From the NCBI RefSeq assembly GCF_900537085.1, contig NZ_UNRE01000005.1, positions 168,542 through 232,541 on the forward strand: a DNA stretch of 64,000 bases, given 5' to 3'. Below, piece by piece: positions 49,858 through 59,006 of the stretch (within the stretch, counting starts at the first letter, position 1; each line of letters begins with the position of its first letter). This DNA is from Agarivorans sp. Alg241-V36 (GTDB lineage Bacteria; Pseudomonadota; Gammaproteobacteria; Enterobacterales; Celerinatantimonadaceae). Both the position numbers and the translations under genes were made by a program. The notes beneath the pieces were generated by a model, which did not search any database, had not been told where the DNA came from, and saw only the letters and a list, made by a program, of their open reading frames with translations.

Positions 49858-50610
49858 CTAAGGCTTTAGCTTTTGTTGTTGATAGCTAAGAAGTAATTGG
49901 CGAAAGGCTGAGGTTTGTTTGGTTTTTTCAAGAGCCTGTTTAAATTGTTCAATAATGGTGTCGTCAACCGATGAGTTAAAGGCGTAACAAAGCTGTTCTT
50001 CCTTGAGTACCCATTTGATCTCGTAGTCTGCAAGAGAAAAGCCGCCAGCCTTGGCGGCGTGTCTAATGGTTTGTTCGGTACCAGCGATTAAGTCTACCCT
50101 ATTGGCGACTAGCATTTTTATTAGGTGGTGGTAGCTATCGGTAAGCATTAAGCTGGCATCGTCTACTTCATTGTTCAGTAGAATTTGCTCGCCAACATCG
50201 GCACTTAACACACCGGTTGTTAACTCATCTAGCTGAGCAAAGGATTCTATTTTTGCTGTGCCCTCGGCCTTTCCCATTAGCACCACATTTACCGTATCTA
50301 TCGGGCATACCCATTTAAAAAACTGCTCTCGCTTGTTAGTACGCACCGTAGCAAATAACACTGTATTAGGCTTTTGCCCTAGCAGGTAATAAGCGCGCTC
50401 CCAAGGCATCACTGTTATTGTTTGCTCGGCTTGTTCCATCTGTTGCCACATAAGCTTTAATAACTCGACCGAGAAACCTTGTGCTTGGCCTTTATCGTCT
50501 AGGTAATTAAGTGGGTAGGCATCCTCGGTGAGGTAATCGAGTTTATCCAGCGACGCGAGACTAGATAAACTAAAGCAATAGATGCAGAACAGGGTTAGCA
50601 AGCGGTGCAT
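49858..50610 (-). CDS. Periplasmic amino-acid-type solute-binding protein
   Basis: The 250-residue product is a family 3 solute-binding protein of the short kind often found without a transporter. MHRLLTLFCIYCFSLSSLASL is a signal peptide; TEDAYPLNYLDDKGQAQGFSVELL and MPWERAYYLL are family hallmarks. The ATG at 50610 has a fair ribosome site (GTGAG); an earlier GTG at 50622 has none. No permease genes adjoin. It lies upstream of the large sensor on the same strand but with a 240-bp gap, so a functional link with that sensor or with the sortase locus is only a guess. Confidence 0.8.
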   Translation of the reverse strand: MHRLLTLFCIYCFSLSSLASLDKLDYLTEDAYPLNYLDDKGQAQGFSVELLKLMWQQMEQAEQTITVMPWERAYYLLGQKPNTVLFATVRTNKREQFFKWVCPIDTVNVVLMGKAEGTAKIESFAQLDELTTGVLSADVGEQILLNNEVDDASLMLTDSYHHLIKMLVANRVDLIAGTEQTIRHAAKAGGFSLADYEIKWVLKEEQLCYAFNSSVDDTIIEQFKQALEKTKQTSAFRQLLLSYQQQKLKP

Positions 50611-50734
50611 AGCGACACTCACGATGATGAATTAGCTTAAGTATAGAAAGTGAGTTACGAAGCTTGCTAGATTTCTGTGAAATGTGCGCTAGGTAGTATT
50701 TTGACTCACTACTTTAAAGCTCCATTTTTAGTGA

Positions 50735-52897
50735 TTACTTGAGCGGAAGCCTTACACAAAATTCTACGCCGCTGTTGTCGGTAAAGTTTCGCGCACTAAT
50801 GCTACCACCATGAAACTCTGTAACGAGTCTTGCGATGTACAAACCTAAACCAAGGTGAGGTTTTTGCTGCGCTTGCTGGCTACGAATAGACACCATCGAT
50901 TCAAAAATTTGTTCCACCATGTTATCTGGCAGAGTAGGGCCGTAGTTACTAATTAACAATACAGCATCTTTGTTATCCTGCTGAAAGCTGACTTTAATGG
51001 CTTTTCCAGGAAGACTAAACTCCATGGCATTGGCCACCAATTTATCCATCAGCTGGGCAATGTATTCAGGTACCCCGTTAATCAGCATGGTGTTGGGGCT
51101 AATATCACAATCAAAGGCTTGTTCGGGGTAGGTATATTGGTAGCCTTGCATACAGCCAGAAATGACCTTATTCAGCGGGAATTCACTGGTATCGGCTTGA
51201 GATAAACTTTGCTCTAAGCGCGTTGCTTCGCTCATGTTATTAAGGATCATGTTCAAACGGTTTACCCCTTCTTGGGCACGGTCGACATATTTTTGGGTAT
51301 CTTGATCATGAGTTTTTAAGCTTAAATGCTCTAAAGATGAACGCACTACCGCAACCGGAGTTCGCAATTCGTGAGAAAGGCGCGATGACATGTTTTCCAA
51401 ATAGTGGGTGTATTGGCCTAAGCGGCCGACAATATTGGCAAAGCTACGCGATAAATCACCAATTTCATCTCGGTCTTTAGCGCCGTTAAATGGAGCGGTA
51501 ACACGCCCTTGGCTATCAATGGCTTGCTCTGCTTGGTCGCGCAACTTGCGAATACGGCTGGAAATGCTCGAAGCAAACAAAAACAGAGCTAATGTGCCTA
51601 CCCCCATAACTAGCAAAATAATGTTAAATAGGCGCTCCAGCGCGCGGTTACGCAGGGTGCGGATACCGTTGGTGGTTTCCTCTGCTACCACCACACCCAT
51701 TACTTTATCGTCAATCCAAATTGGGCTGGCTGCGGCTAATACCACTGCTCTTCCGTCGGGAGTTAAACGCCAAGTAGAGCCGGGTTTGCCGCTTAATGCT
51801 TGCTGGATATGGCTACCTTCTAGCTGGGTGGAGTCTTGTAAGGAGTCAACAAAATCCTGAGGCGGTTTGGTTAATACCTTGTAGTAAAGAGGATGAAGGT
51901 ATTCGCTGGTGAATTTGTTCCACCAGCTTTCTTTATTCACTGGGCTTAAGCTGCGCGCCCAGATGCTTTGAGTACTGCGAATATCGCCCGATTTTGCCAG
52001 CACTCGCCCGTGTTTATCTACTACCCAAATGCGCGAGCTGTTGTGGCTCATGCCTTTAATTATGCTTTCTATCTCAGGAGAGGGTACTAACACCGTGCCA
52101 AGATTATCCACAGTATCGATGGCCGAGGTACCTACAATAGACACTAGCTCACGCTTGGGAGTTCGGTTTACATCATAAACAGAGAACCCCAATTTGCTGC
52201 CAACCATAGTGAGCGGAATACGCAGCTCAATGTTGTATCCTTTTGCGGTTTTTAACCACTGGCCTTGAATTTTTACTTCCGGCTTTACCGGCGTTGTTTG
52301 GTTGGGATCGAGTGGTAACTCAAAAGCGTTGATCCAACCATCTTCGGTAGTGGCAACAATGTAGCGGCGGAACTGGCCGTCAGGCGCTAAAGTCGCGATC
52401 GCCAAATGGTCGTTATTGTCTACCCGCAAAGTGTTTTTACCGCGATACACCACATCACTGTCGGTCACTTCAAAATAGGCGTATAAGTAGCGGCCAAATT
52501 TGCCGACCATGTGAGTGAATTCGCTTTCTAGTGGGCTATCGGGCTTGGCTTGGTAGATTACGTGTTCTTTACCGTAGCGCAGCATTCGATGTTGGTAATC
52601 TTGCCAATCGTTTAGCTTGCCATCTAATTGAATCGGCCCCGATAAAGGGTAGGCATACAAGTCGCGGCCTTTTTGAACTTGGCTTAAAAAACTGGCTTGG
52701 CTGTTAAACAGTTTTGGCCGCTCATGCAGGGCGGTTGCCAGTGCCTGAGTGGTGCCTTCCAAGGTCTTCTCTTGGCCTAAGCGCAGGTACTTTTCCATTT
52801 CCCACACATATTGATAACCAAGCCAAGGCAGGCACAACAAGAACAGTGACAAGATGGTGACCTTGGCGCGCAGGCCAATTGGCAATACTGGCAACAT
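50735..52897 (-). CDS. pdsS: Proteobacterial dedicated sortase system histidine kinase (PdsS)
   Basis: The 720-residue sensor kinase has TM1 near residues 10-28, a large periplasmic part, TM2 near 425-445, HAMP, a DHp domain with His509 in SHELRTP and an HATPase domain (LISNYGP, GLGLYIARLV). The periplasmic region contains a CBM9-like domain (GPIQLDGKLNDWQDY, YLYAYFEVTDSDV), suggesting recognition of a carbohydrate. The ATG overlaps the stop of pdsR by one base. It belongs with the downstream-divergent OmpA protein, sortase target and sortase of this locus. The ligand is unknown. Confidence 0.9.
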   Translation of the reverse strand: MLPVLPIGLRAKVTILSLFLLCLPWLGYQYVWEMEKYLRLGQEKTLEGTTQALATALHERPKLFNSQASFLSQVQKGRDLYAYPLSGPIQLDGKLNDWQDYQHRMLRYGKEHVIYQAKPDSPLESEFTHMVGKFGRYLYAYFEVTDSDVVYRGKNTLRVDNNDHLAIATLAPDGQFRRYIVATTEDGWINAFELPLDPNQTTPVKPEVKIQGQWLKTAKGYNIELRIPLTMVGSKLGFSVYDVNRTPKRELVSIVGTSAIDTVDNLGTVLVPSPEIESIIKGMSHNSSRIWVVDKHGRVLAKSGDIRSTQSIWARSLSPVNKESWWNKFTSEYLHPLYYKVLTKPPQDFVDSLQDSTQLEGSHIQQALSGKPGSTWRLTPDGRAVVLAAASPIWIDDKVMGVVVAEETTNGIRTLRNRALERLFNIILLVMGVGTLALFLFASSISSRIRKLRDQAEQAIDSQGRVTAPFNGAKDRDEIGDLSRSFANIVGRLGQYTHYLENMSSRLSHELRTPVAVVRSSLEHLSLKTHDQDTQKYVDRAQEGVNRLNMILNNMSEATRLEQSLSQADTSEFPLNKVISGCMQGYQYTYPEQAFDCDISPNTMLINGVPEYIAQLMDKLVANAMEFSLPGKAIKVSFQQDNKDAVLLISNYGPTLPDNMVEQIFESMVSIRSQQAQQKPHLGLGLYIARLVTEFHGGSISARNFTDNSGVEFCVRLPLK

Positions 52898-53589
52898 TAG
52901 GCAAGGCTATCCCAGCGATAACCCATGCCATATACCGTGTCGATGCATTCAAAATTGGCATCGGCGGCGAGAAACTTTTTGCGGATCCGTTTTACGTGAG
53001 AAGTAATGGTGCTGTCATCAACAAATATTTTTGCTTCTGTCATCAGCTCTTGGCGGCTACGCACATGCCCTGGGCGCTTAGCGAGTGCGTGCACCATCCA
53101 AAACTCGGTCACGGTGAGTTCGATGGTTTGTTGATTCCAGCTGACTTGCATGCGGTTGCCATCAATTGCCAGTGGGCCGCGTTCTAGCAAATTGTTTTCT
53201 TCTGGCGCTGCACCAACTAACTCCGAGCGGCGAAATAGCGCGGCAATGCGCGCCACTAAATGAGGAAAACTGATGTCTTTGGTTAGGTAATCGTCGGCAC
53301 CTAAACGTAAACCACATACCGTATCAAAGTCACTATCGCGCGCAGTTAAAAAGATAATAGGTAGGGTGCTAGACATTGCACGCAGCGATTGGCAAAGCGA
53401 AAACCCACCGTCTATTTCATCTTCTAAACCAATATCAATAATGGCGAGATCGGGTAGGCGAGTATTAAAAGCGGCTAGTGCACTGGGGCGATTGGCGTAA
53501 GCCTGCACGCTATAACCTTGCTGTTGTAATACGTCTTTGTAGTTTTCGCGGATCGCCGCTTCATCTTCTACGATGGCAATTCGTTTCAT
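52897..53589 (-). CDS. pdsR: Proteobacterial dedicated sortase system response regulator (PdsR)
   Basis: The 230-residue OmpR-type regulator has a receiver domain with phosphoacceptor Asp52 (LAIIDIGLED) and a winged-helix domain with the recognition region TVTEFWMVHALAKRPGHVRSR (in two parts). It lies just before pdsS and divergent from pdsO. It probably controls the sortase genes through the intergenic repeats at 53668-53730. No other regulator is near. Confidence 0.92.
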   Translation of the reverse strand: MKRIAIVEDEAAIRENYKDVLQQQGYSVQAYANRPSALAAFNTRLPDLAIIDIGLEDEIDGGFSLCQSLRAMSSTLPIIFLTARDSDFDTVCGLRLGADDYLTKDISFPHLVARIAALFRRSELVGAAPEENNLLERGPLAIDGNRMQVSWNQQTIELTVTEFWMVHALAKRPGHVRSRQELMTEAKIFVDDSTITSHVKRIRKKFLAADANFECIDTVYGMGYRWDSLA

Positions 53590-53667
53590 GTGGATACTTA
53601 AGTTCTAAGCTGCTGACTTGCATAGACTATACATTATTTTTACGCGGCAATGGGCGCTTCAGTCAAA

Positions 53668-53730
53668 TTGCCATTTTGTTGCCACAATTGATAAGCGAAC
53701 TGCCATTTTTAGCGCCTGATAAAGCCATTT
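53668..53730 (+). promoter_or_regulatory. Candidate PdsR binding region with direct repeats
   Basis: TTGCCA occurs at 53668-53673 and again at 53679-53684, an 11-bp period typical of OmpR/PhoB-family half sites. GCCATTT also recurs at 53670, 53702 and 53724, i.e. 32 and 22 bp apart (about three and two helical turns). The region lies between divergent pdsR and pdsO. The binding protein is inferred. Confidence 0.5.
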
Positions 53731-53810
53731 CAGGAGTGTTTAATTGATTCATCGAAAGGGCAAGCACAAGCAAGCCCAATAAATTAAACACTACTGAGAA
53801 GGACATACTC

Positions 53811-54551
53811 ATGAAAAAGCACCTAATTGCATTAACAGTTATCAGCACTTTAAGCCTTTCTAGCCAAAGCATGGCAAATAATGACACTCAACCAACAGAG
53901 CGTAACGGTAAAACAGAAATGATTGGCTTTGGTTCTGGTGCCGCGGTAGGCGCATTGGTAGGTGGGCCCGTTGGCGCATTTATTGGCGGCTTTACCGGCG
54001 TTTGGATTGGTAAGTCGGTGGCCGATGAAGAAGAGCTAGCCGCTCAGCAGCAACAGTTGGGCGAGCAGCAACAAGAGATAGACGTTCTCGCTAAGCGAAG
54101 TGAACAGCTTGAATCGTTAACCGAGCAGCATGCGCGAGTAAATGCACAGTTGTCGCAGCTCAAAATGGCCCAGCAGCAAAAGCTTGAAGAGCTGGCGATT
54201 GGTTTGAATGTGCAGTTTAAAACCGGCTCGTCTTTGATTGAACCTCACTTTAAACAACAGCTTGATGACGTGGTATACGCCATGAGTTTAGCGCCAGATT
54301 TAAAGCTAGATCTTACCGGTTACGCCGATCGCCAGGGTGACTCAAGTTACAACCAAGCGTTATCTGAGCAACGCTTAGCCGAAGTGCGCAGTTACCTGAT
54401 AAACAATGGGATCGATGAATCTCGTTTACATTCTCAAGCCTTTGGCGATACCGCCCCGCTTAACGCTGAAGCAAATTTAGAAAACAACTTTTTTGACCGC
54501 CGAGTAACCCTAAAGCTGATGTCTGAACGAGGCATGTTAGCAGCACAATAA
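53811..54551 (+). CDS. pdsO: Sortase-system OmpA family protein (PdsO)
   Basis: The 246-residue product has a signal peptide (about 1-22), a glycine-zipper (GSGAAVGALVGGPVGAFIGG) that may insert into a membrane, a Gln-rich coiled coil (about 75-120) and a C-terminal OmpA peptidoglycan-binding domain (LDLTGYADRQGDSSYNQALS and FFDRRVTLKL). It is the first gene of the plus-strand sortase operon. It probably links the outer layers to peptidoglycan. Precise role in the system is unknown. Confidence 0.9.
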   Translation: MKKHLIALTVISTLSLSSQSMANNDTQPTERNGKTEMIGFGSGAAVGALVGGPVGAFIGGFTGVWIGKSVADEEELAAQQQQLGEQQQEIDVLAKRSEQLESLTEQHARVNAQLSQLKMAQQQKLEELAIGLNVQFKTGSSLIEPHFKQQLDDVVYAMSLAPDLKLDLTGYADRQGDSSYNQALSEQRLAEVRSYLINNGIDESRLHSQAFGDTAPLNAEANLENNFFDRRVTLKLMSERGMLAAQ

Positions 54552-54577
54552 ATCAACCAGCTAAAGGAGATAGCGTT

Positions 54578-56761
54578 ATGAAACTAGACATGCTGCAAAT
54601 CAGCACCCGCTTTTGCTATAGCCTCTCTTTTGGCGGCGCACTCATCGTATTATGGGCGGCATTTATGTCGCCCAGCCAAGCGGCTTTGTATAGCGAAGGC
54701 CAAGCCGCAGATGAGTTCGAACAAGCCAGCTTGGTTTATATCGACAGTAATGGCCAACGGCAACATAGCTTACCCTTGTCTACTGAAGTAGACATGCAGG
54801 TCTCTGGCATGACCAACCGAGTTACCTTGAGTCAAACCTTTGAAAACAATAGCGAAGACTGGGTAAATGGGACTTATATGTTCCCATTACCCAATGATGC
54901 TGCTGTTGACCAAATGCAGTTGATAATAGGCGAGCGCATCATTGAGGGGAAAATCCAAGAAAAGAAACAAGCCAAACGCACCTTTGAAACGGCAAAAAAA
55001 CAGGGCAAGCGTGCTAGTTTAGTTGAGCAGTTAAGGCCAAATGTTTTTACTACTGCTGTCGCCAATTTAGGGCCAAATCAACGCTTGGTGGTGAAGATTT
55101 CTTATCAGCAACAGCTCACTTATCAAGATGGCGAGTTTAGCCTGCGTTTCCCCATGGTGGTTAACCCGCGCTATACCCCACAAATTTTTAAAGACCAAGT
55201 TAGAAAAACACTGGCAGACGAAAGTGAAATGCCCTTGTCTTTAGCCAGTTTGCTGCAAGAGCCCTATCAAGAGCTCAATAATAGCAGCGAGTTTAACCAC
55301 GCTTATCAATTGTTAAGCCATAGCGCACGCCAGTATTCACAAGCTGCAACTAACAAGTCACTTCGAGCAAGTATAAAGATTGCGCTAAACAGTGGTTTTG
55401 AACTGGAAAGCTTAGAGAGCCTTTATCACCCTATAGATAAGAGCATTCGTAGCGATGGCACCATAGACATAAGCTTGCTCGATACTAAGGCCAATCGCGA
55501 TTTTGTCTTAAAGTGGCGGCCGATAGTGGGTAGCCGACCAGAAGCCGCGCTATATAGTCAAACTGGTTTAACTCACCCAAGTAATCAATTACCGGCGAAA
55601 GATGACTACGCCCTGTTAATGCTGATGCCACCACAAGGTAAACCTGCCGATATTATCGACATTCCCAGAGAATTAATTTTGGTGATTGATACCTCTGGCT
55701 CAATGTCGGGCGAGTCGATGATTCAAGCGCGAGAGGCCTTGCATGAAGCGCTATCTGGCTTATCCGAGGGTGACTACTTCAATATCATTGAGTTTAACTC
55801 AAACTATCGCCGCTTTATGGCGAATGCAGTCAGCGCCAATGCCAGCAATAAAGCCAAAGCACGCCGCTTTATTAACGGCTTAAGTGCCAACGGCGGCACC
55901 GAGATGTTTTCTGCATTAAATATTGCGCTTAGCGATCCCAAGCAAGCTGCGACTAATGCCTTACGCCAAGTTATTTTTATTACCGATGGTGCGGTTAGTG
56001 ATGAACAATCGTTGTTTGAGTTAATTGATAATCGCCTCGCTGATAATCGCTTGTTCACCATTGGCATTGGCTCGGCGCCGAACTCCCATTTTATGCAACG
56101 CGCGGCAGAGATAGGCAAGGGTACGTTTACCTACATTGGCAAGCAAAGCGAGGTTAAACAACAGGTCACCCGTTTGTTTAAACAGATAGCTCACCCTGTG
56201 GTGAGTGATGTGCAGCTTGCCTTTAGTGATGGCACCGTGCCTGAGTATTGGCCAAGCACCATTCCCGATTTGTACTTAGGCCAGCCACTTATGCTTAGCC
56301 TTAAGTTACCTAGCGGGGCGCATCCGCAGTTAGTGGTGAGCGGCAATATTGGTGGGCAGTTTTGGCAACGTAGCCTTAATTTGCAAACCAAGCAGCCAGC
56401 CGCAGGTTTAGATTTACTGTGGGCGCGGCACTATATCGCGGCCTTAGAGCTTAGCAATCGTTATTTATATGAAGAACGAATAGAAAAACAAGTACTTGCC
56501 TTGGCACTCAAATATCACCTAGTGAGTTCGCAAACCAGCCTAGTAGCAGTAGACGTGACCCCAGCAAGGCCAGCTAACCTACCCATGGTGAATAAGCAGA
56601 TAGATGGCGGCATGCCTCATGGCTGGCAGCAACCAGCGGTGCTACCGCAAACCTCTACCGCTAGCCGTTTGTGGATGTTGTTAGGTGCAATGTTGTTAGC
56701 GCTTGCAGGGCTGTCATTTACGCTAAGGTCTAGAGCTTCTCAAGGAAAGGTTTCTATTTAA
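54578..56761 (+). CDS. Marine proteobacterial sortase target protein (VIT-VWA) with LPQTS sorting signal
   Basis: The 727-residue protein has an N-terminal hydrophobic signal (about 12-35), a VIT domain (about 50-180, SQTFENNSEDWVNGTYMFPL), a VWA domain with MIDAS Asp371-X-Ser-X-Ser (DTSGS) and a C-terminal cell-wall-sorting-type tail: LPQTS at 689-693, a hydrophobic stretch (about 698-716) and RSR. The tail ends GKVSI. The last position of the usual LPxTG is Ser. It is followed by a sortase gene, and this is normally the sole substrate of that sortase. The VWA suggests binding of a protein or surface ligand. Confidence 0.92.
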   Translation: MKLDMLQISTRFCYSLSFGGALIVLWAAFMSPSQAALYSEGQAADEFEQASLVYIDSNGQRQHSLPLSTEVDMQVSGMTNRVTLSQTFENNSEDWVNGTYMFPLPNDAAVDQMQLIIGERIIEGKIQEKKQAKRTFETAKKQGKRASLVEQLRPNVFTTAVANLGPNQRLVVKISYQQQLTYQDGEFSLRFPMVVNPRYTPQIFKDQVRKTLADESEMPLSLASLLQEPYQELNNSSEFNHAYQLLSHSARQYSQAATNKSLRASIKIALNSGFELESLESLYHPIDKSIRSDGTIDISLLDTKANRDFVLKWRPIVGSRPEAALYSQTGLTHPSNQLPAKDDYALLMLMPPQGKPADIIDIPRELILVIDTSGSMSGESMIQAREALHEALSGLSEGDYFNIIEFNSNYRRFMANAVSANASNKAKARRFINGLSANGGTEMFSALNIALSDPKQAATNALRQVIFITDGAVSDEQSLFELIDNRLADNRLFTIGIGSAPNSHFMQRAAEIGKGTFTYIGKQSEVKQQVTRLFKQIAHPVVSDVQLAFSDGTVPEYWPSTIPDLYLGQPLMLSLKLPSGAHPQLVVSGNIGGQFWQRSLNLQTKQPAAGLDLLWARHYIAALELSNRYLYEERIEKQVLALALKYHLVSSQTSLVAVDVTPARPANLPMVNKQIDGGMPHGWQQPAVLPQTSTASRLWMLLGAMLLALAGLSFTLRSRASQGKVSI

Positions 56762-56845
56762 TCTAGGTCGTCCATCTCTGAGCTACTGGCTAAAGCTTGC
56801 TAGCTCAGGCTCTTTCACTTTGCAGATAAACAGCGTTTAGGGAAC

Positions 56846-57469
56846 ATGATGAGCATAAGTTTTTTAGCCAAACACCCAGTACCTTGTAGCCTGTTTTTGT
56901 TGGGCATTTTGGTATTAGGCCACGGAGCTTATATTCAAGCAAAAGCATATTTGGCCCAGTTTTTAATTGCTCAAGCTTGGCAGCAAACCTTGGACGACCA
57001 GCAAGTTCATAAACCTTGGCAGTGGGCCGATACCTATCCGGTTGCCAAGCTGAGTTTTGTGACCAAACAAGAAAGCATAGGCTTTAAGCATCAAGTTGAG
57101 TCTGTTTATGTGCTGGCGGGGGCATCGGGTAGAACCTTGGCATTTGGTCCAGGTTTAGTACTTAGCGGGGCAAAAATTGGCGAGGTAGGCAACACCGTGA
57201 TTGCTGGGCATCGCGATACCCATTTTGCCAATCTAGCAGCCGTAAACAAAGGCGACTTATTACAGGTTGAAGCGAGCAATGGCGAAATTTTGCTATATCA
57301 GGTGGTGAATACACAAGTTGCTCACCAAAGTGATACTCAGTTTATGGCGCCCAGTGATGATAACCGCTTAACCCTGATCACCTGTTACCCCTTCAACCAA
57401 CTGAGTGGCGGGGCAGAGCAGCGCTATATAGTGGAAGCGCTGTATGTGAATAAACCCTCGGCTATATAG
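56846..57469 (+). CDS. Class GN-type sortase
   Basis: The 207-residue sortase has an N-terminal membrane anchor (about 14-36), His122 in AGHRDTHF, Cys180 in LITCYPF and Arg193 in EQRYIVEAL, all three catalytic residues in the family order. This Gram-negative dedicated sortase processes the VIT-VWA target encoded just upstream. What acceptor receives the target is unknown because a Gram-negative wall lacks the classic cross-bridge. Start ATG 56846 follows TAGGGAAC; a second Met directly follows. Confidence 0.93.
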   Translation: MMSISFLAKHPVPCSLFLLGILVLGHGAYIQAKAYLAQFLIAQAWQQTLDDQQVHKPWQWADTYPVAKLSFVTKQESIGFKHQVESVYVLAGASGRTLAFGPGLVLSGAKIGEVGNTVIAGHRDTHFANLAAVNKGDLLQVEASNGEILLYQVVNTQVAHQSDTQFMAPSDDNRLTLITCYPFNQLSGGAEQRYIVEALYVNKPSAI

Positions 57470-57479
57470 CTGAGGGCTG

Positions 57480-57503
57480 AAAAGGCCACTAATGCGGCCT
57501 TTA
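57480..57503 (+). terminator. Terminator between sortase and DUF3179 genes
   Basis: AAAGGCC and GGCCTTT pair across an eight-base loop and are flanked by A and T. The genes on both sides converge here. Confidence 0.6.
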
Positions 57504-57527
57504 GTTGTTAAATTGCAATAAGCTTTG

Positions 57528-58604
57528 TTAGCTTAGCACTAGGGTGTTAGGGAAGAATTGCGTCCAAATACCATAGTGAACTCCATTATGAGTAGCGACC
57601 TGCTTACCTTCGCTGTTAAGCAACCTTACTATCTCACCATCACTTTCAATTTGCAGGGTTTCTCCGCCAAACTCAAAGGCAAAACCGTTATTCTTGCGAG
57701 CAAAGTTAGGGTCAATGGCAAGTTGCTGATGGCCGTTGTCATAGCCAAATATCTCTAACTTAGGGTTTAGGCGCGTATCGTCTAGGTTTAAGGTATCGAA
57801 GATAAAGTCTGGGTTCTCAATATTGCGTTGGTCTTTAAGTGGTTGTTCAAATAAACCTAACAATACTTCATCTAACAAACGCTCCATTCCATAAATGTAT
57901 ACTTGAGCATCAGGGTACATCTCTTTAGCCGTTTGCCACTCCATTTGAGTGTTAGGTAGTACCGACGTTTTGTGCTCGGTAAACTCAGACTGCATGGTGA
58001 TTTGCTGGATGGCAGTACCATTATTAATGTCTTTAAACACTAGGTTGTTATGCACTTGGCCTAATACCTGTAGGTTTGACTCGCCCAAGCCATAGTCGGT
58101 TTCTACTACCATAGGCAAATTTGATAAACCACAGTAGGTAACGGCATATTCATTACCATCCTGTTCAAAGCCTGCAACGTGAGGCACTTGTAAATGATAG
58201 CGAGGGAAGATGTAGCTTTGCTCGCCCATTTCTACAACATAAACTCGTGAATCTTCTTGAGGGATCAGCGCGTCGGCTTGTTCAACCGAGTAATATTGAG
58301 CGCTAAATTGTTCTGTTGGAAAGGCCGTAGGCATGGCGTACGATTGCGCCCAAAAGGTGAGGGCAACACCAGCGGTGGATAATGCCATCCAAACCGGTTT
58401 CCAAGAGCGGGTTTTGGCATTGGCATACCACAACACCGCTAATGCAATAGCTTGACCAGTCCAGTAATAAGGCATGTAACGGAAGTAGTGCAAGACTAAA
58501 TCTCTAGGAACACCAATAGTTTGCCCTGGTTCGGTCATTAACACCGCACAAAAAATAGCAAAGCTGGCTAACACTAAGGCGTATAAGTTAAAGAGTATTT
58601 TCAT
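57528..58604 (-). CDS. DUF3179 family membrane protein
   Basis: The 358-residue product has three to four hydrophobic segments in its first 120 residues (FNLYALVLASFAIFCAVLM, AIALAVLWYA, ALSTAGVALTFWA) followed by a soluble DUF3179-type domain with YAVTYCGLSNLPMVVETD. The function of DUF3179 is unknown. The ATG at 58604 is chosen over 58679 because AGGGGA lies five to six bases before it. It is monocistronic and converges on the sortase operon. Confidence 0.85.
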   Translation of the reverse strand: MKILFNLYALVLASFAIFCAVLMTEPGQTIGVPRDLVLHYFRYMPYYWTGQAIALAVLWYANAKTRSWKPVWMALSTAGVALTFWAQSYAMPTAFPTEQFSAQYYSVEQADALIPQEDSRVYVVEMGEQSYIFPRYHLQVPHVAGFEQDGNEYAVTYCGLSNLPMVVETDYGLGESNLQVLGQVHNNLVFKDINNGTAIQQITMQSEFTEHKTSVLPNTQMEWQTAKEMYPDAQVYIYGMERLLDEVLLGLFEQPLKDQRNIENPDFIFDTLNLDDTRLNPKLEIFGYDNGHQQLAIDPNFARKNNGFAFEFGGETLQIESDGEIVRLLNSEGKQVATHNGVHYGIWTQFFPNTLVLS

Positions 58605-59006
58605 TGTTTCCCCTGGGTGCAATTGTTTTGTGCGCGCAGAGAGTCTAATCATCAATTGTGGGACAATGCCCGCCATCACTCTTGCACGCTAACTGAAAGA
58701 AAATGACAACCTTTGGTTGCCTAAATGCTTACAACGGGGTGAATTGTTACATAGTGATTGGTGGTGAATAAGCTGTATAGGTGAGAAGTATTGTTGCAAA
58801 TTATGAATCAATATCGGTAGTTCAATATTGTGAACGGGGCTTAAATCAAGCAAAAGCTGTATACCGAAGAGCGGGTTACCTGCATCAACCAGACATTTTG
58901 GCTGGCAATTAACTAATAGCTTAAAATTAGACCACTGTTGAAAAGCCTAGGCAGTTCGTATTACCTTTAGGTCATCTTAAATATTCGATAGTGTAAGGGA
59001 ACTATA
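58605..59006. other. Intergenic region between DUF3179 and Rob-like genes
   Basis: This 402-bp divergent gap has no recognised frame. CAACC, TTT, GGTTG at 58707-58719 is a short palindrome. No clear -10/-35 pair was seen. The ribosome site AAGGGA at 58995-59000 belongs to the next gene. Confidence 0.4.

What the first reader, a model, noticed from the sequence alone, without database searches (positions are those of the whole stretch)
50735..57469. Complete dedicated sortase system with a non-canonical LPQTS sorting signal
The locus contains kinase, regulator, OmpA-type protein, VIT-VWA target and sortase with intact His122/Cys180/Arg193. The target's tail reads LPQTS (689-693), then a hydrophobic stretch and RSR; the usual motif ends in Gly. 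The kinase has a CBM9-like periplasmic domain, so the trigger may be a carbohydrate. The acceptor of the sortase reaction in a Gram-negative cell is unknown. The system itself is known in marine proteobacteria; the altered signal and the acceptor are the open points.
Basis: partly seen in the sequence, partly recalled or inferred. Interest (0 to 1): 0.7.

Follow-up and report, generated by a model that had tools for sequence, protein, structure and literature searches.

The report
Gram-negative sortase with ordinary LPxT signal
A Gram-negative bacterium carries a known five-gene kit thought to cut and re-attach one envelope protein; its supposedly odd LPQTS tag is a conserved variant of this family's LPxTA-type tag, which resembles that of Gram-positive class D sortases and suggests the cell wall as the attachment point.

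Summary
The locus holds a kinase, regulator, OmpA-like protein (PdsO), VIT-VWA target and sortase; all five pass the NCBIfam cut-offs of the proteobacterial dedicated sortase system. The tail reads LPQTS at residues 689-693 and H122/C180/R193 are intact.

The premise that the usual motif ends in Gly is wrong for this family. Over 167 targets with a sortase hit beside them, position 5 is Ala 125, Gly 28, Ser 12, Asp 2; the consensus is LPxTAT. Six of seven species of the window's genus have Ser; its codon varies (TCT/TCA/TCG) while the residue stays and the membrane helix behind it drifts. The signal looks constrained, not degraded.

The sortase is nearest class D, the LPxTA enzymes, without being class D. 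A review says that B. anthracis SrtC cuts LPNTA, joins the protein to m-diaminopimelate and shares an operon with its target and a two-component pair (PMC3297441). I infer the same acceptor here, untested. PdsO has no hit in 103 of 167 loci, so it is hardly a general acceptor.

New: an 11-bp direct repeat upstream of pdsO in 40 of 44 PdsO loci, a candidate operator. System known; interest moderate.

The parts
50735..52897 (-). sensor histidine kinase; CBM9-like plus Cache-like periplasmic sensor, then HAMP, HisKA, HATPase_c
   Evidence: TIGR03785 1079.5 bits; HisKA and HATPase_c over their Pfam cut-offs, HAMP and Cache models below theirs; 23 of 44 family sensors match CBM9_1, the window's does not; Foldseek CBM9 and WalK on a low-confidence model
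52897..53589 (-). OmpR/PhoB-type response regulator
   Evidence: TIGR03787 419.1 bits; next best CreB 173.1 bits
53668..53727 (+). candidate operator of the regulator: TTGCCATTTTGTTGCCA (11-bp direct repeat, 53668-53684) and further GCCA half-sites in near-11-bp phase
   Evidence: conserved in the 7 species of the genus between diverged flanks; in 40 of 44 PdsO loci with up to two mismatches, 31 exact; the 38-base form occurs once exactly in the genome
53811..54551 (+). PdsO: signal peptide (read by eye), glycine-rich stretch, OmpA-type domain
   Evidence: TIGR03789 278 bits; OmpA PF00691 over its cut-off, Gly-zipper PF13441 just below; D173 and R188 in 51 of 51 PdsO aligned
54578..56761 (+). 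sortase target: VIT domain (residues 68-176), VWA domain (about 365-525) and sorting signal
   Evidence: TIGR03788 740 bits; VIT and VWA in Pfam; D371, S373, S375, T441, D470 each in 167 of 167
56642..56656 (+). sorting motif LPQTS (residues 689-693), followed by TASRL, a membrane helix and RSR
56846..57469 (+). class GN sortase, H122/C180/R193
   Evidence: TIGR03784 236.8 bits; sortase fold, mean pLDDT 90.4; only sortase found in the genome

Best explanation
This is an ordinary, intact member of the Gram-negative dedicated sortase system, and LPQTS is a working variant of the family signal LPxT(A/S/G). Inferred mechanism: Sec exports the VIT-VWA protein, which stops in the inner membrane by its C-terminal helix. 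The membrane-bound sortase cuts after the Thr of LPQT-S, forms a thioester on C180, and passes the protein to an amino group. The most likely acceptor is the side-chain amine of meso-diaminopimelate in peptidoglycan or lipid II, as described for class D SrtC of B. anthracis. The result would be a VWA protein covalently fixed to the thin periplasmic wall. PdsO, an OmpA-type protein that keeps the two residues expected (from memory) to bind diaminopimelate, would hold the same wall non-covalently in the subset of species that has it. The divergent two-component pair, sensing through a CBM9-like plus Cache-like domain, would drive the operon from the TTGCCA direct repeats. Shown by sequence: gene identity, conservation of the signal, single sortase and single detectable target, class D nearness, the repeats. 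Inferred: cleavage, acceptor, location, regulation.
For: Position 5 over 167 targets: A 125, G 28, S 12, D 2; position 6 T in 126. 6 of 7 species of the genus have Ser, 1 Ala; Ser codons TCT, TCT, TCA, TCG, TCA, TCT. The 10-residue signal block is 0.95 identical on average among the six Ser species, against 0.42 in the membrane helix, 0.73 in the 12 residues before it and 0.64 in the linker further up. Ser against the rest needs 6 changes on the tree. For the window sortase class D scores 85.4 and 82.5 bits against 43.6 (E), 41.9 (C), 30.8 (F); of 19 sortases scanned 19 match both class D models, 19 class E, 18 class C, 13 class F, best E-values lowest for class D. Best solved relative by sequence is 2ln7, a class D enzyme of B. 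anthracis, E 8.4e-14, next 4.1e-7. Published class D signals: LPNTA cut between T and A and joined to m-Dpm, operon basI-srtC-sctR-sctS (PMC3297441, passages); LPxTAT in 26 of 27 anchors of B. cellulosilyticus and LPDTST in one (PMC3617157, Table 3 in section 13). One sortase and one signal in the genome. Sortase next to the target in 82 of 82 long-flank loci that were chosen for having a sortase hit.
Against: No cleavage, mass or localisation data. The structure search does not single out class D: chains of several classes score alike. The window sortase is below the class D cut-offs (85.4 against 140; 82.5 against 165). The test for sortase residues that follow position 5 found none, but had too few independent pairs to reach significance, so tolerance is inferred. 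A deletion of a gene called srtA in Shewanella oneidensis had no significant effect on current density (PMC8176591, passages), so no function is shown there; I did not check that this gene is the class GN sortase. C. perfringens SrtD, also class D, prefers LPQTGS (PMC4498605, passages), so class D is not uniform.
Confidence: 0.55

Rival explanations
1. The acceptor is a protein of the same operon, above all PdsO: the sortase couples the VWA protein to PdsO and so to the outer membrane.
For: PdsO is encoded directly before the target in the window; 52 of 167 loci have a PdsO hit upstream of the target on its strand.
Against: 103 of 167 loci have no PdsO hit at all although at least 900 bases before the target frame are held; 4 have a hit elsewhere only and 8 are too short to judge (of the 82 long-flank loci 52 have none, 27 have it, 3 elsewhere). 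The search used one query, so very divergent ones may be missed. No lysine of the mature PdsO is conserved: best K137, 34 of 51. Among 56 dereplicated long-flank loci no other neighbour family is found in more than 13; that one I take by eye for diguanylate cyclases, the next (10 loci) for a metabolic enzyme.
Confidence: 0.1
2. The enzyme works as a membrane-release protease: it cuts the target off its helix and water resolves the thioester, so the VWA protein becomes soluble in the periplasm.
For: No acceptor is proven. Many loci show only target plus sortase of the five genes. In the same protein family other tails belong to other processing enzymes (PMC3237569, section 12).
Against: Sortase fold and triad are kept, including R193, as in transpeptidases; a class D relative is described as transpeptidating to m-Dpm (PMC3297441).
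Confidence: 0.25
3. LPQTS is a degraded signal and this sortase no longer acts on its target.
For: Ala is the family rule; the window differs.
Against: Ser kept in 6 of 7 species over synonymous codon turnover; block 0.95 identical while the helix drifts to 0.42; catalytic residues intact; LPQTST also in L060 and L061, and Ser in L032, L053, L142 and L163; LPDTST in one published anchor of a class D host.
Confidence: 0.04

Closest known systems
Proteobacterial dedicated sortase system (TIGR03784, 03785, 03787, 03788, 03789)
   Same: All five genes pass the curated cut-offs; the gene order (kinase and regulator divergent, PdsO-target-sortase) recurs in relatives; one sortase and one detectable target in the genome
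   Different: Position 5 of the signal is Ser, a minority state (12 of 167)
Class D sortase SrtC/SrtD of B. anthracis with BasI and SctRS
   Same: Nearest class by profile and by PDB sequence; LPxTA-type signal; sortase, target and two-component pair together
   Different: Gram-positive, sporulation role, BasI target; window sortase below the class D cut-offs; Gram-negative envelope
LPXTAT anchors and class D subfamily-4 sortases of Bacillus cellulosilyticus
   Same: LPxTAT with Thr at position 6; one LPDTST anchor
   Different: 27 targets and 4 sortases, most targets polysaccharide enzymes; not a dedicated system
VIT-VWA (vault-like) proteins with PEP-CTERM or GlyGly-CTERM tails
   Same: Same protein body with tripartite C-terminal tail (PMC3237569, section 12); 8 of the 17 tails here without a sortase hit contain PEP near the end
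   Different: Cognate enzymes are exosortase or rhombosortase, not sortase

Membership tests
Proteobacterial dedicated sortase system | Each protein over the curated cut-off of its NCBIfam model | tested here: met
   5 of 5
Proteobacterial dedicated sortase system | One sortase and one target per genome, side by side | tested here: met
   One sortase; one signal; 84 bases between target and sortase genes
Proteobacterial dedicated sortase system | C-terminal motif, membrane helix, basic tail | tested here: met
   LPQTS, helix, RSR; over the family 147 of 167 tails have net charge of at least +1 after the helix
LPXTG (class A type) substrate | Gly at position 5 | tested here: not met
   Ser in the window; Thr-Gly at positions 4-5 in 13 of 167 relatives
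Class D sortase | Over the curated cut-off of NF058671 or NF033746 | tested here: not met
   85.4 against 140; 82.5 against 165
Class D sortase | LPxTA(T) substrate | tested here: inconclusive
   Ala 125 of 167, position 6 Thr 126 of 167 in the family; Ser in the window
Class D sortase | Transfer of the target to m-diaminopimelate | not testable with these tools
   needs mass spectrometry
Sortase (C60) in general | Sortase fold with His, Cys and Arg | tested here: met
   pLDDT 90.4; the 50 PDB rows shown are sortases; triad 166 of 167
CBM9 | Match to CBM9 in sequence and fold | tested here: inconclusive
   23 of 44 family members match CBM9_1, the window's does not; the profile search of the PDB finds no CBM9; Foldseek CBM9 first on a poor model

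The most novel reading that the evidence does not exclude
Class GN sortases are the Gram-negative branch of the class D (LPxTA) system and covalently fix a metal-binding VWA protein to diaminopimelate of the thin periplasmic wall. This would be a further enzymatic route, apart from that of L,D-transpeptidases and Lpp (recalled), for covalent protein attachment to Gram-negative peptidoglycan. In the PdsO clade it is switched by one dedicated operator. In some lineages the enzyme has even moved from a Thr to a Gly cleavage residue (LPxG).
Probability: 0.4. Interest if true: 0.7.

Novelty: new member of a known kind. Interest (0 to 1): 0.4.

Why it matters
The odd-looking signal turns out to be a key to the open point. 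Once the family's consensus (LPxTAT) is seen, the nearest studied enzymes are class D sortases, for one of which the acceptor is described as diaminopimelate, a residue that Gram-negative walls also carry (recalled). That turns 'acceptor unknown' into one muropeptide experiment. The conserved direct repeat gives the regulator a testable target.

Tried and rejected
Degraded signal: rejected. PdsO as general acceptor: disfavoured. A recurring neighbour gene as acceptor: none found. Co-variation of sortase residues with the signal: 870 residue states against each of 7 traits, with independent pairs on the tree. No listed state averaged six differing pairs, which the tool says is the least that can reach 0.05, so the test is underpowered rather than clearly negative. 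The strongest lead for position 5 is V133 (5.1 pairs one way, 0.4 the other), with F17 equal (one search was a first run whose output was cut). Fold comparison to choose the sortase class: not discriminating. Sequence profile of the sensor against the PDB: only hits of E 0.2 and up, none a CBM9. Plasmid collection, near mode: no match. Promoter scan of 53580-57600: 1 hit, shuffles 5.6 on average. Rfam and tRNA scans of the window: nothing.

Rows dropped: of 189 sequences (188 loci plus the window stretch) L001 is the window itself, L002, L003 and L059 gave no target over 150 bits, L047 had no stop; 184 tails remained, 167 with a sortase hit and 17 without. The motif was found by script; three rows (L038, L092, L156) were mis-picked and set by eye from the tails. 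Aligned counts differ by one at two positions (P 152, T 143; P 151, T 144). Sampling is one genome per species and uneven; weighting at 70, 80 and 90% identity leaves Ala at 81.5, 78.3 and 78.0%. In one search the line named body is not a fair comparison because of insertions, and I do not use it. PdsO was first counted as 51 with, 106 without, 10 unclear; a recount without a distance limit gives 52 with, 4 elsewhere only, 103 without any hit, 8 too short (L071 had been missed), and I use the recount. The residue conservation of PdsO rests on the 51.

Literature: ten searches listed no paper that by its title or abstract start treats the class GN acceptor; none was aimed at an operator of the regulator. 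The library lacks most subscription journals. Comfort and Clubb 2004 and Marraffini and Schneewind 2007 were not held, so earlier mention of LPxTA in Gram-negatives cannot be excluded. Section 12 of PMC3237569 and section 13 of PMC3617157 were read; of the other papers cited I saw passages only.
Full report
WHAT IS THERE. The window's genome (4.7 Mb, 14 contigs) has one sortase. One sorting signal was found: the Pfam anchor model has a single match over its cut-off, this tail, at 22.3 against 20 bits (the protein scan at E up to 0.001 did not list it). A profile of 58 related tails, the window's among them, gives E 5.6e-11 here and 0.146 next. Catalytic H122, C180 and R193 are each kept in 166 of 167 sortases; the exception is one row that differs at all three. 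D371, S373, S375, T441 and D470 of the VWA domain are each kept in 167 of 167 targets; that these are its metal site (MIDAS) is recalled.

IS LPQTS ODD. I collected relatives of the target at E up to 1e-80: 9 of 12 genomes of the family, 42 of 398 sampled in the phylum, 80 of 394 in the order, 59 of 369 in the class, these samples overlapping; and 20 named loci. Of 184 tails, 167 have a sortase hit in the locus. Position by position: L 80, Y 43, M 19, F 12 at 1; P 151, A 14 at 2; Q 100 at 3; T 144, G 23 at 4; A 125, G 28, S 12, D 2 at 5; T 126, L 22 at 6. Thr-Gly as in LPxTG is found in 13 of 167. So the family signal is LPxTAT and the residue at 5 alternates among small ones. On a tree of the target without its tail, position 5 changes 18 times, Ser against the rest 6 times and Gly against the rest 10 (FastTree, with several long branches and many open forks). 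The commonest six residues are LPQTAT (34), then YPQGGT (11), then LPQTST and LPKTAT (8 each).

IS IT DEGRADED. It does not look so. Within the genus, 6 of 7 species have LPQTST and one LPQTAT. The Ser codon reads TCT, TCT, TCA, TCG, TCA, TCT, so the base drifts and the residue stays. The ten-residue block is 0.95 identical on average among the six, the helix behind it 0.42, the stretches before it 0.73 and 0.64. No sortase residue was seen to go with the change at position 5, but the test had too few independent pairs, so a tolerant pocket is likely rather than shown.

WHICH SORTASE CLASS. The window sortase scores 236.8 bits to class GN, then 85.4 and 82.5 to the two class D models, 57.7 to the general model, 43.6 to E, 41.9 to C, 30.8 to F. 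Of 19 sortases scanned, 19 match class D, 19 class E, 18 class C and 13 class F, with class D giving the lowest E-values of these. It stays below the class D cut-offs, so I do not file it as class D. The nearest solved chain by sequence is 2ln7 (E 8.4e-14; next 4.1e-7), titled in the fold search as B. anthracis SrtD. The predicted structure (pLDDT 90.4) is a sortase but lies about equally near chains of several classes. Published class D facts, from passages and one section that I read: SrtC cuts LPNTA between Thr and Ala and its acyl intermediate accepts m-Dpm, in an operon basI-srtC-sctR-sctS with a two-component system (PMC3297441); 26 of 27 anchors of B. cellulosilyticus read LPxTAT and one LPDTST (PMC3617157; the paper's text calls all 27 LPXTA); C. 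perfringens SrtD prefers LPQTGS over LPNTGS (PMC4498605), so class D is not uniform. The same review says that in bacilli and listeria the amino group used by sortase A comes from m-Dpm as well.

THE ACCEPTOR. The gene neighbourhood argues for a general envelope component. The sortase lies on the same strand, overlapping or within 100 bases of the stop-to-stop target frame, in 82 of 82 long-flank loci (chosen for having a sortase hit). A PdsO hit lies upstream of the target in 52 of 167 loci; 103 have none at all with at least 900 bases held, 4 have one elsewhere only, 8 are too short. No lysine of mature PdsO is conserved (best 34 of 51), and no other neighbour family is found in more than 13 of 56 dereplicated loci. 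Diaminopimelate is the parsimonious acceptor, by analogy with class D. This is inference; rivals are release by hydrolysis and a protein partner. PdsO keeps D173 and R188 in 51 of 51, which I equate from memory with the diaminopimelate-binding pair of OmpA-type domains.

REGULATION. Between regulator and pdsO lies a block conserved across the seven species of the genus while its flanks drift. It begins TTGCCATTTTGTTGCCA (53668-53684), a direct repeat of 11-bp period as OmpR/PhoB/CreB-type regulators use (recalled), and GCCA recurs further on in near phase. Allowing up to two mismatches it is present in 40 of 44 PdsO loci with a divergent regulator (31 exact; the 44 include all 7 of the window's genus) and in 4 of 25 such loci without PdsO, one of them, L062, exact. 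In the 69 regions together 53 sites lie in 21,896 bases of one strand; the rest of the loci has 102 sites in 1.17 million bases counted over both strands. The longer 38-base form occurs once exactly in the genome, and three more places match with two mismatches, against one for the control pattern, so the regulon may be this operon alone. Against: the short form matches 85 places in the genome with up to one mismatch, 6 of them exactly, control 12, and nothing shows binding.

SENSOR. CBM9-like is supported for the family (23 of 44, best 8e-6) but not by the window's own sequence, and the model is poor (pLDDT 54.6). Foldseek's best rows are a CBM9 and sensor domains, WalK among them. A carbohydrate or wall-state trigger is plausible, not shown.

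WHAT IS KNOWN. Haft and colleagues describe LPXTG-tailed vault-like proteins with a dedicated Gram-negative sortase, and relatives with GlyGly-CTERM or PEP-CTERM tails (PMC3237569, section 12; author name recalled). A 2023 paper says that the role of sortases in Gram-negatives remains unknown (PMC10581121, passages). A deletion of srtA in S. oneidensis left current density unchanged (PMC8176591, passages).

VERDICT. Observation confirmed; the 'altered signal' is ordinary variation; the acceptor question stays open but now has a testable candidate. New member of a known kind; interest 0.4.

Noticed in passing
L029, L041, L042, L053, L054, L077-L080, L109, L110, L115, L118, L122, L128, L132, L136, L138, L139, L156, L158, L159, L187: In 23 of 167 targets position 4, the Thr that should form the thioester, is Gly (YPQGGT, LPQGAS, FPAGAT), with 7 changes on the tree and all 23 neighbouring sortases with H, C and R in place. 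A sortase that acylates at Gly would be unusual.
   Followed up: partly
window 53668-53727: Conserved direct-repeat array upstream of pdsO, the candidate operator of the regulator.
   Followed up: yes
L172, L174, L178, L181-L185: 8 of the 17 target-like proteins without a sortase hit carry PEP in tails that look like PEP-CTERM (by letter match and eye), the passenger swap described in PMC3237569.
   Followed up: partly
L041, L042: Target and sortase pairs in MAGs named Candidatus Sulfomarinibacter (Acidobacteriota) and Holophagae bacterium, outside Pseudomonadota.
   Followed up: no
sortase residues 33-62: Class GN sortases share near-invariant K33, L40, W58, W60, A61, D62 before the catalytic domain (at least 162 of 167 each); function unknown.
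   Followed up: no
L045, L046, L048-L052, L055, L058, L153, L157-L159, L168, L187: Loci without PdsO whose divergent kinase and regulator score lower to the window's; of 25 non-PdsO loci with a divergent regulator only 4 show the TTGCCA repeat, so another operator is likely.
   Followed up: no
window 49858-50622 and 57528-58679: Neighbours: a family-3 solute-binding protein and a DUF3179 protein, with no sign of belonging to the system.
   Followed up: no
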